The translations under genes were made by a program, and so were the position numbers. Below the pieces are notes generated by a model. That model saw only the letters and a program-made list of their open reading frames with translations, had not been told where the DNA came from and made no database searches. Positions 2,208 through 14,970 of a stretch of DNA of 50,779 nucleotides are shown in pieces. The stretch comes from Bacteroidota bacterium (GTDB taxonomy: Bacteria > Bacteroidota > Ignavibacteria > UBA10030 > BY39), in NCBI GenBank assembly GCA_030017895.1, contig JASEGV010000014.1:1-50779 (forward strand). Direction: 5' to 3'. Every line of letters begins with the position of its first letter. Positions within the stretch are counted from its first letter, which is position 1.

Positions 2208-2903
2208 TCAGTCCTGCTTCGACTTGGTAAAGAAGTCGGTGGCGGGCGCGTCCTTCTTCTCCTCAGGCGGCTTTTGCTTTTGAACCTGCTCAGCCTTATT
2301 TTCAGAGGCTTTGCCGTCCTTTTCAAGAGACTCTTCCATGCCGGTCTTTGGACGGTGCTTCTCGGCTATGCCCTTGGTTTTCTCATATTCACCCTTCCGC
2401 CTCTTCCTCTCCTCCCTGTCCTGTGCCTTCTCGCCTTCCTTTTTCGTTTGACTGCCGCCCTTTGGCTGGGATTTTTTCTGCTCGTTGAGTTTCTGGAGTT
2501 GTTCGTTAGTCCATTTTGTGAACTGATCGAAAACATCTGCGCCATATTCTTTTTTCATATACTCTTGCAGTTTATTGAACCCCTCCTCGGTTCTCTTGAA
2601 TTTTTGTTCTTTCCCTAACCCCGTTACAGTATAATATTTACTATCTGCAGAAACTATTAGTCCGTGCTCTTTGTTTAAATAATCTTTTTTTTCCATAACT
2701 TCTTCAAATTCTTTAAATGATACAATTTCATCTTTCTTCCCTACTAGAGCAGAGAAATCTTTCTTTTTTTCTGATTTTGGAATATTTGGAATCCGAACGC
2801 GCTCTTTTTCCAATCCCCCTTCTAGCATGGGCTGTCGATTGATTGGGATTTCATTAAGCGGTGGCTTCTGCTCCTTTTTTGATACGGGTTCAGCATTTCC
2901 CAT
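2208..2903 (-). CDS. Hydrophilic, lysine/glutamate-rich protein of unknown function
   Basis: 231 residues with no signal peptide or membrane segment. Residues roughly 45-130 look like a small folded part (FSALVGKKDEIVSFKEFEEV, then a segment with YYTVTGLG and a YMKKEYGADVFDQFTKW helix). Residues 130-231 are a low-complexity charged tail (repeated KK/EE/QK), probably disordered or coiled. The start MGNAEPVSKK is 17 bases after the stop of the upstream unknown gene, so the two may be co-transcribed. The foreign style of the block and the lack of recognisable relatives leave origin and function open. Confidence 0.5.
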   Translation of the reverse strand: MGNAEPVSKKEQKPPLNEIPINRQPMLEGGLEKERVRIPNIPKSEKKKDFSALVGKKDEIVSFKEFEEVMEKKDYLNKEHGLIVSADSKYYTVTGLGKEQKFKRTEEGFNKLQEYMKKEYGADVFDQFTKWTNEQLQKLNEQKKSQPKGGSQTKKEGEKAQDREERKRRKGEYEKTKGIAEKHRPKTGMEESLEKDGKASENKAEQVQKQKPPEEKKDAPATDFFTKSKQD

Positions 2904-2919
2904 ATTATCAACCTGGTCG

Positions 2920-3612
2920 CTAGTTAAAGATGGCCGCCACTTCGTCCTTTTTCATTTCCATTTCCCCCGTTCTTAATACCTGAATTTTGAAACCCGCAAA
3001 TTCATCATCTCTTACGTCAACCACATCTGACCCATTTCCTTCCCTAATTGTTGCGCGGGTTAGTCGCGGAAAACCATCTCCAAAGCGATCAGCGTATTTC
3101 CTCTGAATCACAGTATTTGTTTTCATTATCAGTATCATTGTGTTTGTTGTGGCAAAAAGTGTGCCATCGGATGACACGTATATAGCTCCGTCATGAGTGA
3201 AAATCTTACTTCCATCTTTTGGTTTTAATGTCCCAACATGTACGGTATCAAATGAAGAATTGGGGGTCACGCGATCAATCCAATTTTCTGCTACCACGTA
3301 TGCACAATTACCGACGCCATCTATATTTGTGTATATAATTTGTTTTATATCTCCTTTCTTAATCTCAATATCAAACGTCTTTTCCCCGACTATCTTGATG
3401 CCGTTCTCGTAAGTAACTTTCATCTCTTTCGGCACCTCTATCTTCGCGACCTGTTTCGCCTCGTTCTTGTTTTCCTTCACCGCGCTCGCTACCGGTTTGT
3501 TCGCTGCAAAGTTTCTGTCTGCCTTTTCTTGTGCGCTTGCGGGCGTGAATGCTGCGCTGAGTGTAAAACAAATCTGCGCAGTTATGCCATCTATACCAAA
3601 TCTTGTATACAT
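2920..3612 (-). CDS. Unknown protein, N-terminus fused at a sequence junction
   Basis: 230 residues. Residues about 10-28 (AQICFTLSAAFTPASAQ) resemble a signal peptide with an AxA-like cleavage site, so it may be exported. The rest is beta-rich (IEIKKGDIKQIIYTNIDGVG, then HVGTLKPKDGSKIF, AIYVSSDGTLFATTNTMI) and ends EMKKDEVAAIFN. The first residues (MYTRFGIDG) overlap, in another frame, the coding sequence of the glycosidase-like gene. The true start was therefore probably lost and replaced at a junction near 3570-3600. No family recognised. Confidence 0.45.
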   Translation of the reverse strand: MYTRFGIDGITAQICFTLSAAFTPASAQEKADRNFAANKPVASAVKENKNEAKQVAKIEVPKEMKVTYENGIKIVGEKTFDIEIKKGDIKQIIYTNIDGVGNCAYVVAENWIDRVTPNSSFDTVHVGTLKPKDGSKIFTHDGAIYVSSDGTLFATTNTMILIMKTNTVIQRKYADRFGDGFPRLTRATIREGNGSDVVDVRDDEFAGFKIQVLRTGEMEMKKDEVAAIFN

Positions 3613-4498
3613 CTCTCTCTTTTACAACACAAGATTGAAAGAGACCTTCTTTATCATCGGTGGAATGCTCTGTCGTGAGAATAGGATTTCCTCCGTACTT
3701 TCCCCATGCAATTCCATCTTTTGAAGCCGCATAGCCGATAGCACGCTGTTTCGTATTGCCAAAATAGAATGCCTCATAGTAGGAACTATCCGGCAGTACA
3801 TCGGCAATCCATTGCTCGTACTCGTCCCATGTGCCTGCCTCACCTGATTCAAATAGCGGATTATGGAGTGTGTCTTTTATCCAGTTAATTCCATCCGAAG
3901 AAGTAGCAATGCCTGACTGCCATCGTGTGTCAGAGCGAAAACCGTTGTACCACATCTTCCACTGTTTGCCCTGCTTGAGAACAGGTCCGGCAGATAATCC
4001 GTAATCATCCCACCAACCCGGGTCGCCCCGCTTCAACACAGGATTGTTGGCGTCGTCTTTCGTCCACGATATGCCATCAGAAGAAATTGCGTGGCAAATC
4101 ACTCCAGTATTCGTATAGCTGCGGGCTGTGTAATACATGTGGTAGTTGGTACCATCGTAAACCACAGCACCCGGTGAAACAACGTGGTCGTCAATTGCAC
4201 CTCGCGGTCCAACTCTTAGAATGGGATTGCCGGGATACTTTGCCCATGTGAGACCATCAGCAGACGTTGCATATCCGATTTGCCTGCAAGTGTCGTTATT
4301 ACCTGCGTACCACATTCGATAGAGCTCGCCGTCGAAAAGTATGCGTGGATGCGAGACTTGTTTGCTCTCCCATGAACCATCGTGTCCGACCCGGAGAACG
4401 GGATTTCCTTCGTATTTTGTGAAAAGTGTTTGTGCACCAGCAATGATTGAGAAAAAACACAAAGAAATGAATGCGAGTATTTTGGGATAATACATCAT
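3371..4498 (-). CDS. Secreted five-bladed beta-propeller glycosidase-like protein, C-terminus replaced
   Basis: The start at 4498 is chosen because AAAGGAG lies 7 bases upstream. The protein begins MMYYPKILAFISLCFFSIIA then GAQ, a signal peptide. Residues 25-290 contain repeated blade motifs of the GH43/GH32/GH130-like superfamily: (R/K)MWYAG, IGYATSADGLTWAKYPGNPI, YHMYYTA, ISSDGISWTKD, WKMWYNG, IATSSDGINWIKD. Such proteins bind or cut plant- or mannan-type glycans, but the substrate cannot be told. After about IWYRWHN (near 3590) the frame turns into a lysine/arginine-rich tail that is simply another gene read out of frame. The native C-terminus is therefore missing. Confidence 0.65.
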   Translation of the reverse strand: MMYYPKILAFISLCFFSIIAGAQTLFTKYEGNPVLRVGHDGSWESKQVSHPRILFDGELYRMWYAGNNDTCRQIGYATSADGLTWAKYPGNPILRVGPRGAIDDHVVSPGAVVYDGTNYHMYYTARSYTNTGVICHAISSDGISWTKDDANNPVLKRGDPGWWDDYGLSAGPVLKQGKQWKMWYNGFRSDTRWQSGIATSSDGINWIKDTLHNPLFESGEAGTWDEYEQWIADVLPDSSYYEAFYFGNTKQRAIGYAASKDGIAWGKYGGNPILTTEHSTDDKEGLFQSCVVKERDVYKIWYRWHNCADLFYTQRSIHARKRTRKGRQKLCSEQTGSERGEGKQERGETGREDRGAERDESYLRERHQDSRGKDV

Positions 4499-12504: not shown

Positions 12505-13842
12505 ATGCGAAATATATTAAAACTTACGACGTTAATTTCACTAATGCTGTTGCTTCTTGCAGGTTGCTCGAAGGAAAAGGATGATATAACTGAACCGATA
12601 GACGAACGGCTTGTTGGTACGAATTCTTGCGTTGGATGCCATACAAATTATGAAGCTTTAAAAATTTTAGCTGACCCTGAAACCCCGCCTGAAGATGGTG
12701 GTGGTTGTGGAGGTGCGACTCCATACTTTCCGCCATACGACCGAGTGTATATGGGAGGTTCGGGTGCACAAAATTTTTTGAATTCTTCTCACGGTAAAAA
12801 GGGTTGTGTGTATTGCCATAGCGGTGTGGATAATATCATCGATAAAAATAAAGCCCATTCAAATAATTTCATAAGTAACCCATCGGGTGTAGAAAATAAT
12901 AAATGCCAAGTTTGCCATTCTTCCATTTACCGAAGGTTCCAAAATAGTTTACACGCGGAAGGTTGGGGACAAAAAAAACGGGTTAGTTTACGTGCGGGAT
13001 TAACTTCGTATGATCAATTGACAACAATAGCAAAAAAAGAATACGATAAAAATTGTGGTAAATGCCATGCAACTTGTAGTAAGTGTCATATCTCACGACC
13101 TGCTGCTTCTGGCGGTGGTTTGTTATGGGGACATGAAATTAAGAAAACTCCAAATATCCGCGACAACTGCACTGCTTGCCATGTTAGCCGAGGTGGACAT
13201 GCATATTTTGGTGAAGGTATTGGAACCGTACCCGACGTTCACTTAACTAAACTTGGCAACGGGCACTGCATCAATTGCCATACAAAAAATGAGCTGCACG
13301 GCAACGGAGTTAAATACGAACAACGATATCAAATGGCACTGTTACCAAAATGTGAAAACTGTCATACAGGTCTGGCAACTTCGAATCAATATCATTCAAA
13401 GCATCTTAATGATTTGAGCTGCTCAGTTTGTCATTCACAAAATTATAACAACTGTGGTAGCTGTCATGTTGGCACAGGCGCCCGCATCCCTGCTTATGTG
13501 GGTTATAAAATAGGAATGAATCCGATTCCACAAATTAAAAAATATAAATACGCTGTTCTTCGTCAAGCTCCCGGAGCGCCTGATGCTTTCGAGAATTGGG
13601 GAATCCCAAATCTTACAAATTTTGATATTGAGCCTACTTATAAATACGCTACACCACACAGCAATATAAAATGGACTTCTCGTACAAGAGTTGAAGCAGG
13701 TAAAGCATGTTATGACAACTGTCATATTATTGATGGAAGGAATAAAGGGATATACCTTTTCAGATCAGACCTTCGAGATTGGGAAATTAATGCTAATAAC
13801 AGCGTAGTGGTTGACGGTAAATTACCGGCAGGATGGAATTAA
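12505..13842 (+). CDS. Multihaem c-type cytochrome lipoprotein (10 CxxCH plus one CxxxCH)
   Basis: 445 residues. The signal peptide ends in lipobox LAGC (Cys21), so it is predicted to be lipid-anchored. Haem motifs in order: CVGCH, CVYCH, CQVCH, CGKCH, CSKCH, CTACH, CINCH, CENCH, CSVCH, CGSCH. A CYDNCH motif with three residues between the cysteines lies near the C-terminus. The fourth and fifth motifs are only a few residues apart. Many free histidines (NSSHGKK, SLHAEGW, LHGNG, HSKHL) could be distal ligands. It resembles the OmcA/DmsE/NrfA-like multihaem assortment in motif density but not a family I can name. Role: electron transfer at the envelope. It is followed 57 bases later by a rhodanese lipoprotein in the same direction. 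Confidence 0.9.
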   Translation: MRNILKLTTLISLMLLLLAGCSKEKDDITEPIDERLVGTNSCVGCHTNYEALKILADPETPPEDGGGCGGATPYFPPYDRVYMGGSGAQNFLNSSHGKKGCVYCHSGVDNIIDKNKAHSNNFISNPSGVENNKCQVCHSSIYRRFQNSLHAEGWGQKKRVSLRAGLTSYDQLTTIAKKEYDKNCGKCHATCSKCHISRPAASGGGLLWGHEIKKTPNIRDNCTACHVSRGGHAYFGEGIGTVPDVHLTKLGNGHCINCHTKNELHGNGVKYEQRYQMALLPKCENCHTGLATSNQYHSKHLNDLSCSVCHSQNYNNCGSCHVGTGARIPAYVGYKIGMNPIPQIKKYKYAVLRQAPGAPDAFENWGIPNLTNFDIEPTYKYATPHSNIKWTSRTRVEAGKACYDNCHIIDGRNKGIYLFRSDLRDWEINANNSVVVDGKLPAGWN

Positions 13843-13898
13843 TAAAATTAAAAATAAATAATAAATAATAACATCAACATTTAATTAAAGGATAAACC

Positions 13899-14912
13899 AT
13901 GAAAAAACTAAACTTATTTTTGCTTATCGTTATGGCGTTCTCATTATTTATAATGGGATGTAAAGATGATGCAGTTACACCACCCCCTCCACCCCCTCCA
14001 GTTAACGAGTTTCAAGTATTAGCTGAATACTTAGAAGGTGCCGGAGGCGATTATCTGAACGTTGCCGCACCAGTTCTTATAGATGCCATCGATGTTTATA
14101 ACGGTCTCGACTCAATCGGCATGTCTCAAACGGTAGTTGATTTACGCACAGCGGGCGATTTCACTGCGAAACGTATGAAATGGGCAAAAAACACTACATT
14201 AGCCAACTTAAGAAAATATGTTGACTCATTGAATGTTCTTACAGCAAAGCCGGCAAAAATTGTTCTCGTTTGTTACTCAGGACAAACCTCACAGTATGGT
14301 GCTTCGCTAATGAGATTATTAGGACACACAAATGTTACTTCAATGAAGTACGGCATGAGTGCATGGGATTCAAGTTTAGCACACAATTACTGGTGGACAA
14401 AACGTAGTAATGCACGTGCTGGCCAATTTGTAACAGACTCAGTTGCAAAAGCTCCAATTGGAGCTACGCCTGTTTTGAATACCGGAAAAGCTACAGGGCG
14501 TGATATACTTATAGCACGTGTCGATACTCTGTTACAACGAGGATTTACTGAAGCCACTATTTCAGAAGCAACTGCTTTCGGTAATCCAAGTGGCTATTAT
14601 ATTGCGAACTATTGGACGATGGCAGATTATACAACTTTAGGACATATTCCAGGGGCAAAACAATATACACCAAAAGTAGACTTAAAATTAGCAACTAATT
14701 TAAAAACTCTCCCAGCTAATCAACCTGTGGTAATATATTGTTGGACAGGTCAAACGAGTGCCGCAGTTGCTTCTGTCCTAAGAATATTAGGGTACGATGC
14801 AAAATCACTGTTATATGGAAGCAACAGCATGATATACGATGTTTTATTGGGCGCTGCAAAAACCACTTTTAAAAGAACTGATATCAAAGATTTACCAACA
14901 ATTTCAGGATAA
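13899..14912 (+). CDS. Double-rhodanese-domain lipoprotein
   Basis: 337 residues. The signal peptide ends in lipobox IMGC (Cys21), followed by a run of seven prolines, a spacer that would hold the domains off the membrane. Two rhodanese-like domains follow, with active-site loops CYSGQTS (Cys125) and CWTGQTS (Cys281). The first carries VVDLRTAGDF, and the second is preceded by HIPGAKQYTP. Both loops keep the cysteine able to carry a persulfide sulfur. It sits directly after the multihaem cytochrome and before a terminator, so the two form a likely bicistronic unit. A role in polysulfide, thiosulfate or sulfite chemistry at the envelope is an inference from the pairing. AAAGGA precedes the ATG. 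Confidence 0.88.
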   Translation: MKKLNLFLLIVMAFSLFIMGCKDDAVTPPPPPPPVNEFQVLAEYLEGAGGDYLNVAAPVLIDAIDVYNGLDSIGMSQTVVDLRTAGDFTAKRMKWAKNTTLANLRKYVDSLNVLTAKPAKIVLVCYSGQTSQYGASLMRLLGHTNVTSMKYGMSAWDSSLAHNYWWTKRSNARAGQFVTDSVAKAPIGATPVLNTGKATGRDILIARVDTLLQRGFTEATISEATAFGNPSGYYIANYWTMADYTTLGHIPGAKQYTPKVDLKLATNLKTLPANQPVVIYCWTGQTSAAVASVLRILGYDAKSLLYGSNSMIYDVLLGAAKTTFKRTDIKDLPTISG

Positions 14913-14934
14913 TTTGTATCATCAAGTAAATAAT

Positions 14935-14970
14935 AAAGCCGTCCATGATTATCGGGACGGCTTTATTAAT
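14935..14970 (+). terminator. Intrinsic terminator after the cytochrome/rhodanese unit
   Basis: A 10-bp stem AAAGCCGTCC / GGACGGCTTT with a 10-base loop is followed by ATTAAT. The A-run on the other side means it could also work on the minus strand. It lies 23 bases after the rhodanese stop codon. Confidence 0.8.

What the first reader, a model, noticed from the sequence alone, without database searches (positions are those of the whole stretch)
12505..14912. Multihaem cytochrome lipoprotein paired with a double-rhodanese lipoprotein
Ten CxxCH motifs and one CxxxCH sit on a lipid-anchored protein. Directly downstream is a lipid-anchored protein with a polyproline stalk and two rhodanese domains with intact cysteines, and then a terminator. 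I know of no named system with exactly this pair. It might move electrons to or from sulfur compounds (polysulfide, thiosulfate, sulfite) at the envelope.
Basis: partly seen in the sequence, partly recalled or inferred. Interest (0 to 1): 0.7.

Follow-up and report, generated by a model that had tools for sequence, protein, structure and literature searches.

The report
Paired sulfur-transfer and 11-haem cytochrome lipoproteins
Many uncultured anaerobic bacteria of the Ignavibacteria and Bacteroidota carry two neighbouring genes that never part, an electron-carrying protein with eleven haems and a sulfur-transferring protein, both anchored in the cell envelope, and conserved cysteines in both suggest they handle sulfur bound to protein while moving electrons.

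Summary
Window 12505-13842 encodes an 11-haem lipoprotein (10 CxxCH + 1 CxxxCH). 13899-14912 encodes a double-rhodanese lipoprotein, followed by a terminator-like hairpin. The pair is a strictly conserved two-gene module: 48 of 48 non-redundant cytochrome loci, from Ignavibacteria and Bacteroidota, have the rhodanese immediately downstream (median gap 42 bp).

New evidence points to protein-bound sulfur chemistry. (1) Besides the lipid and haem cysteines, the cytochrome keeps one cysteine, C68, in 48/48, in a GGCGG-type motif like the sulfur-carrying motif of SoxY. (2) Ten conserved non-motif histidines plus C68 equal eleven, the number of distal ligands eleven haems need. (3) Both rhodanese cysteines are kept in 47/47 cytochrome-paired copies and lost in 11/11 TonB-receptor-linked paralogues. 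(4) Within the window's genus the rhodanese was swapped (47% identity) under a conserved cytochrome (86%).

A porin/14-haem/11-haem conduit lies elsewhere in the host genome; in Melioribacter-like relatives it adjoins the pair. The nearest named system is Geobacter ExtHIJKL, but its porin and cytochrome models are not met. Best reading: a rhodanese-coupled envelope redox module for sulfane sulfur. Substrate and electron direction are unknown. New variant of a known kind.

The parts
12505..13842 (+). 11-haem lipoprotein cytochrome (CYT): 10 CxxCH and one CxxxCH
   Evidence: family of 48 loci
12565..12567 (+). Lipobox cysteine C21 of CYT (LLAGC); conserved in 47 of 48 (the other copy is cut by a contig end)
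12628..13725 (+). Span of the eleven haem motifs, C42-H46 to C402-H407
12700..12714 (+). GGCGG motif (aa 66-70) with C68, the only conserved cysteine that is neither lipid nor haem anchor (48 of 48)
13843..13898 (+). Short intergenic gap; the genes probably form one transcript
   Evidence: median gap 42 bp in relatives
13899..14912 (+). Double-rhodanese lipoprotein (RHO), both active-site cysteines present
13959..13961 (+). Lipobox cysteine C21 of RHO followed by KDD (surface-export-like signal)
   Evidence: signal definition from PMC5080379
14271..14273 (+). Active-site Cys125 of rhodanese domain 1 (CYSGQTS loop)
14739..14741 (+). Active-site Cys281 of rhodanese domain 2 (CWTGQTS loop)
14931..14968 (+). 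Terminator-like hairpin ending the unit
   Evidence: z -4.6; not listed by the simple scan

Best explanation
The two genes make one envelope redox module. The rhodanese lipoprotein, probably exposed on the outer surface, takes sulfane sulfur (from thiosulfate, polysulfide or S0) onto its two active-site cysteines. It passes the sulfur to, or takes it from, Cys68 of the 11-haem lipoprotein. Cys68 is either a SoxY-like carrier thiol or the distal ligand of one haem, as in the SoxA/TsdA type. The haem chain supplies or removes the electrons and connects to the cell's electron transfer system; in the host genome that includes a separate porin/14-haem/11-haem outer-membrane conduit. SHOWN: both genes, both lipoboxes, eleven haem motifs, obligate pairing, invariance of C68 and of both rhodanese cysteines, presence of the conduit genes in the genome. 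INFERRED: surface location, the sulfur hand-over, the role of C68, and the coupling to the conduit. UNKNOWN: the sulfur substrate and the direction of electron flow (reductive release of sulfide seems somewhat likelier for anaerobes with a Psr/Phs-like enzyme, but this is a guess).
For: Obligate pairing: 27 of 27 cytochrome genomes in a 395-genome phylum sample and 13 of 13 among 100 relatives have RHO directly downstream; 48 of 48 non-redundant loci (plus L063). C68 in a G-C-G/S-G motif is the only extra conserved Cys in 48 of 48; the GGCGG Cys of SoxY binds sulfur substrate (PMC6067878). Ten conserved non-motif His plus C68 equal eleven, the number of haems; a Cys-ligated haem does sulfur chemistry in TsdA (PMC4423706). 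Both rhodanese Cys kept in 47/47 CYT-adjacent copies; Ser/Ser or Ser/Asp in 11/11 TonB-receptor-linked paralogues, one clade at 100/100. Surface-type export signal after the RHO lipid Cys: at least 2 acidic residues in +2..+6 in 42 of 47 RHO against 26 of 48 CYT (PMC5080379). RHO slot replaced within the genus while CYT stayed (86% vs 47%), as reported for outer-surface lipoproteins of Ext clusters (PMC6148476). Conduit present in the host at G000:C110 and next to the pair in Melioribacter-like genomes. The host also has a PhsA-like Mo-enzyme locus with TsuA/YedE-like transporters and another rhodanese.
Against: No structure: the haem-less model of the cytochrome failed (pLDDT 44), so the ligand count is arithmetic on conserved residues; invariant Lys114, Lys335, Tyr180 and Tyr275 are rival ligands. 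No expression or biochemical data. In the window no porin or further cytochrome adjoins the pair, and the five family-f14 pair genomes of the sample lack this porin family, so the pair does not need that conduit. Regulators differ (MarR, Crp/Fnr, sigma-54) and none is a known sulfur sensor. SoxY's motif is C-terminal, whereas here it is internal. The paralogues that lost their cysteines form one clade, i.e. possibly one event.
Confidence: 0.5

Rival explanations
1. General extracellular electron transfer. The 11-haem lipoprotein is an ordinary outer-membrane or periplasmic relay for metals, humics or electrodes, and the rhodanese is an accessory protein protecting it from, or scavenging, sulfide and persulfide.
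For: The pair lies inside a tetrahaem/porin/14-haem/multihaem-lipoprotein cluster in Melioribacter-like genomes. 22 of 27 pair genomes have that porin family versus 35 of 368 others in the sample (Fisher; confounded by phylogeny). Ignavibacteria are linked to iron and electrode reduction (PMC7399161).
Against: Does not explain why exactly one non-haem Cys in a GGCGG-type motif is invariant, nor why the rhodanese is never missing and keeps both cysteines. Family f14 pair genomes lack the porin.
Confidence: 0.22
2. Oxyanion reduction of the Geobacter Ext type (selenite, tellurite, perhaps arsenate), with the rhodanese handling selenium or sulfur adducts.
For: Same part-list logic as extHIJKL, where loss of extI impairs selenite and tellurite reduction (PMC5877670). 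RHO relatives in family f32 sit next to a porin that matches the ExtI model at 50 bits.
Against: The cytochrome does not reach the ExtKL or ExtM cut-offs, and no pair genome reaches the ExtI cut-off.
Confidence: 0.13
3. Maturation or repair. The rhodanese delivers sulfur to, or keeps reduced, the cysteines of the cytochrome during assembly in the envelope; it has no catabolic role.
For: One-to-one pairing and operon-like spacing fit a dedicated helper.
Against: The rhodanese slot was replaced by a 47% identical copy under an 86% identical cytochrome, unlike a tailored helper. RHO also occurs without CYT beside an OprO/P-type porin.
Confidence: 0.1

Closest known systems
Geobacter sulfurreducens ExtHIJKL(MNOPQS) cluster
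   Same: Rhodanese-family lipoprotein encoded with multihaem cytochromes of an outer-membrane conduit; the rhodanese is the exchangeable outer part (PMC6148476, PMC5877670)
   Different: Here no adjacent porin in the window, a different 11-haem cytochrome with GGCGG, no pentahaem selenoprotein; ExtI, ExtKL and ExtM models not reached
Porin-cytochrome (Pcc) conduits, reported also in Ignavibacterium album (PMC4245776)
   Same: Outer-membrane electron conduit; a porin/14-haem/11-haem lipoprotein set is in the same genome
   Different: The pair is a separate unit in the window; conduit sets carry no rhodanese of this kind except where the pair adjoins them
SoxY / SoxA / TsdA (Sox-type sulfur carrier and Cys-ligated cytochromes)
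   Same: Conserved Cys in GGCGG (SoxY), or a possible Cys-ligated haem (SoxA/TsdA)
   Different: No Sox domain match; eleven haems; motif internal; lipoprotein partnered with a rhodanese
Octahaem tetrathionate reductase (OTR, PDB 1sp3) / SirA (MccA)
   Same: Weak partial profile match over about 130 residues (E 7e-4); Dethiobacter encodes SirA-like cytochromes together with rhodanese proteins (PMC10376724)
   Different: Eight haems versus eleven; no full-length similarity
Tandem rhodaneses (e.g. 6mxv, 1e0c, mercaptopyruvate sulfurtransferases)
   Same: Two rhodanese domains (fold E-values 3.5e-8 to 1e-4)
   Different: Both domains carry the active-site Cys, lipid-anchored, low whole-chain TM-scores (about 0.3), so the domain arrangement may differ

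Membership tests
Geobacter ExtHIJKL electron conduit | Rhodanese-like lipoprotein encoded with multihaem cytochrome(s) | tested here: met
Geobacter ExtHIJKL electron conduit | Adjacent ExtI-type porin | tested here: not met
   Neighbours in the window are peptidase-like genes and an SLBB export-like gene; ExtI model NF040900 over cut-off in 0 of 40 genomes searched
Geobacter ExtHIJKL electron conduit | ExtKL pentahaem (seleno)protein | tested here: not met
   NF040886 15.5 bits against cut-off 250; 11 haem motifs
Geobacter ExtHIJKL electron conduit | Sequence relationship of RHO to ExtH itself | not testable with these tools
   No Geobacter genome or ExtH sequence was reachable
Porin-cytochrome complex (Pcc) | Porin gene next to periplasmic and surface cytochromes | tested here: not met
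   Not at this locus; present at G000:C110 in the same genome
OTR / SirA octahaem family | Eight haems and full-length similarity | tested here: not met
   11 haems; only a partial match to 1sp3
MtrC/UndA outer-membrane cytochromes | MtrC/MtrF-type domains (PF22113) | tested here: not met
   No such match at E up to 1
SoxY sulfur carrier | GGCGG motif with substrate-binding Cys | tested here: met
   GCGG or close variant around C68, C68 in 48 of 48; internal, not C-terminal; substrate binding itself not tested
SoxY sulfur carrier | SoxY domain | tested here: not met
   No SoxY match in Pfam or NCBIfam
SoxA/TsdA Cys-ligated cytochromes | Haem with Cys distal ligand | tested here: inconclusive
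   10 conserved His plus C68 for 11 haems, but no structure
Rhodanese superfamily | Rhodanese fold with active-site Cys | tested here: met
   PF00581 2.1e-19; model pLDDT 89.8; fold matches

The most novel reading that the evidence does not exclude
A single envelope cytochrome combines a Sox-like sulfur-carrying cysteine (GGCGG, possibly the ligand of a His/Cys haem) with an eleven-haem wire. It works with a surface rhodanese that has two active sites, so that extracellular sulfane sulfur is reduced or oxidised while bound to protein and its electrons pass through the envelope. This would be a Sox-like chemistry joined to extracellular electron transfer in lineages not known to have it.
Probability: 0.3. 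Interest if true: 0.85.

Novelty: new variant of a known kind. Interest (0 to 1): 0.62.

Why it matters
Rhodanese lipoproteins have been noted beside outer-membrane cytochromes in Geobacter without a settled explanation. This module is a minimal, obligate two-gene version with conserved cysteines that make the sulfur-transfer idea directly testable. If right, it adds an envelope sulfur redox step to sediment and aquifer Ignavibacteria and Bacteroidota, and ties extracellular electron transfer to the sulfur cycle.

Tried and rejected
Structure prediction of the cytochrome failed (pLDDT 44; the program places no haems), so no fold search was run with it. A PDB profile search gave only a weak partial match to OTR. 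I first suspected the cl10/cl11 genes next to rhodanese paralogues to be PsrA/PsrB; the sequences show a TonB-dependent receptor (CarbopepD_reg and Plug domains) and a lipoprotein-like protein without a family, so that sulfur-enzyme link was dropped. ExtI, ExtKL and ExtM membership was tested and rejected. The Melioribacter roseus multi-omics paper (PMC5492636) was searched for the pair; no mention of multiheme or rhodanese proteins. The polyproline stalk was considered as a defining feature and rejected as not conserved. One of the two Fisher tests (cysteine retention) used provisional hand-entered counts; the counted values replace it.

Full report
OBSERVATION. CYT (12505-13842, 445 aa) has lipobox LLAGC, ten CxxCH and one CYDNCH. 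It matches only generic multihaem Pfam families (Cytochrome_C7 1.2e-8, Cytochrome_C554 2.5e-6) and no NCBIfam model near its cut-off. RHO (13899-14912, 337 aa) has lipobox IMGC, a proline run and two rhodanese domains. Its AlphaFold model is good (pLDDT 89.8) and its best fold matches are tandem rhodaneses and mercaptopyruvate sulfurtransferases. The genes are 56 bp apart and end at a stable hairpin (14931-14968; z -4.6). The flanking genes run the other way and look like peptidases upstream and an SLBB polysaccharide-export protein downstream (names by eye from the sequence), so the pair stands alone here.

CONSERVATION. The window is a whole contig (G000:C14) of a 3.2 Mb genome. In 100 relatives both proteins occur together in the same 13 genomes, always adjacent and in the same order. 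In a 395-genome phylum sample CYT occurs in 27 genomes and RHO in 31; all 27 CYT genomes have RHO directly downstream. No CYT has an intermediate score (all matches are at or below 4e-190, no others pass 1e-30), so it is a discrete family. A named-genome scan gave 17 loci labelled Ignavibacteria, Melioribacter, Prolixibacteraceae, Bacteroidales and others. Across 48 non-redundant loci, 47 have the adjacent RHO by automatic calling (median gap 42 bp), and the 48th (L063, genome G074) has it by direct search.

WHAT IS CONSERVED INSIDE. Every CYT has eleven haem motifs. Besides the lipid Cys and the 22 haem cysteines, exactly one cysteine is conserved, C68, in 48 of 48, in a glycine-rich context (GGCGG in most). 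Among 938 neighbourhood ORFs the loose motif GC[GA][GA] occurs (as GCGG) in 46 of 52 CYT copies and in only six other places; two of those are the OprO/P-type porins that flank RHO copies in family f32. The Cys in GCG is conserved in all six f32 porins examined, although these porins have two more conserved cysteines. In SoxY the Cys of a C-terminal GGCGG binds the sulfur substrate (PMC6067878; see also PMC5336275). CYT also has ten conserved non-motif histidines (H96, 118, 150, 210, 232, 246, 265, 297, 300, 385; 48 of 48, H232 47) and no conserved methionine. Ten His plus C68 make eleven possible distal ligands for eleven haems. A Cys-ligated haem is the active site of TsdA, where a sulfur adduct forms on the ligand (PMC4423706). 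This count is an inference; the cytochrome model failed.

THE RHODANESE. Both active-site cysteines are kept in 47 of 47 CYT-adjacent RHO. Of four f32 RHO copies beside an OprO/P-type porin, three keep both. In 11 paralogues encoded behind a TonB-dependent receptor and a lipoprotein-like protein, both are lost (Ser/Ser or Ser/Asp), and these form one clade at 100/100. So the catalytic cysteines go with the redox or porin partner, although the loss may be a single event. The residues after the RHO lipid cysteine resemble the Bacteroidetes surface-export signal (K-(D/E)2, SDDDD, SDDFE; PMC5080379): at least two acidic residues in +2..+6 in 42 of 47 RHO and 26 of 48 CYT (lipobox positions found by pattern, a few are probably wrong). 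In the window RHO reads C-KDDAV and CYT C-SKEKD. In the window's own genus the cytochromes are 86% identical and the neighbours alike, but the rhodaneses are 47% identical. The congener's RHO nests in another clade (68% identity to family f4 genomes, 100/99), so the rhodanese slot was replaced in place. The same pattern, stable cytochrome with exchangeable outer lipoprotein, is described for Ext clusters (PMC6148476).

SURROUNDINGS. In Melioribacter-like genomes the pair sits in a conserved run: tetrahaem C554-type, beta-barrel-like protein, 14-haem, multihaem lipoprotein with CxxxxCH motifs, sigma-54 PAS regulator, CYT, RHO, TPR protein, and in some haem-synthesis genes. In the order of the window the pair often follows a MarR-type gene, and in Bacteroidales it is divergent from a Crp/Fnr-type gene (by eye). 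The host genome has the porin-like, 14-haem and 11-haem lipoprotein genes at G000:C110. In the sample 22 of 27 pair genomes have the porin family against 35 of 368 others (Fisher p about 3e-16); this is confounded by phylogeny, and the family f14 pair genomes lack it. The host also has one Mo-enzyme locus: PhsA-like (543 bits, below cut-off 694), FeS and NrfD-type subunits, two TsuA/YedE-like half transporters and a rhodanese. Sulfane-sulfur metabolism is therefore plausible in this organism.

MECHANISM. The best-supported reading is an envelope module in which the rhodanese transfers sulfane sulfur to or from Cys68 and the haem chain moves the electrons. Shown: the parts, their invariance, the obligate pairing, the conduit genes in the genome. 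Inferred: surface location, sulfur hand-over, Cys68 role, connection to the conduit. Unknown: substrate and direction. Rivals are a general EET relay with a protective rhodanese, an Ext-like oxyanion reductase, and a maturation factor.

KNOWN SYSTEMS. The nearest in design is Geobacter extHIJKL (PMC6148476, PMC5877670). Its porin and pentahaem models are not met here, and ExtH itself could not be compared. Dethiobacter has SirA-like octahaems encoded with rhodanese proteins (PMC10376724). No paper found in the open library describes this pair; most subscription journals are not in it. I rate it a new variant of a known kind.

Noticed in passing
L206 (G000:C110:1-7783): The host genome has a separate outer-membrane conduit set: beta-barrel-like protein 163-1449, 14-haem cytochrome 1463-2662, 11-haem lipoprotein with CxxxxCH/CxxCH domain 2678-3907, followed by NfnAB-like genes.
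   Followed up: yes
L161:12920-16408 (genome G427): A 24-haem, 1163-aa cytochrome with a C-terminal type IX secretion sorting domain (Por_Secre_tail), directly after a second RHO copy; suggests export of a multihaem cytochrome by the type IX system.
   Followed up: no
L067, L155-L160: RHO paralogues that lost both active-site cysteines sit behind a TonB-dependent receptor and a ~268-aa lipoprotein-like protein; five in tandem in genome G313 (L156). Role unknown, perhaps binding proteins on a rhodanese scaffold.
   Followed up: partly
L153, L154, L215-L219 (family f32): Two tandem RHO genes followed by an OprO/P-type porin with a weak ExtI match (50 bits) and a conserved GCG loop cysteine: an ExtH-ExtI-like arrangement without a cytochrome.
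   Followed up: partly
L227:4918-10346 (G000:C1): PhsA-like molybdoenzyme locus with FeS and NrfD-type subunits, two TsuA/YedE-like half transporters, a rhodanese and neighbouring molybdenum-cofactor genes.
   Followed up: partly
L068 versus window 13899-14912: In-place replacement of the rhodanese gene between two members of one genus while the cytochrome and neighbours are conserved.
   Followed up: yes
L170:12981-15602: The multihaem lipoprotein of the conduit cluster varies from about 7 to 29 haem motifs between relatives, apparently by repeat expansion.
   Followed up: no
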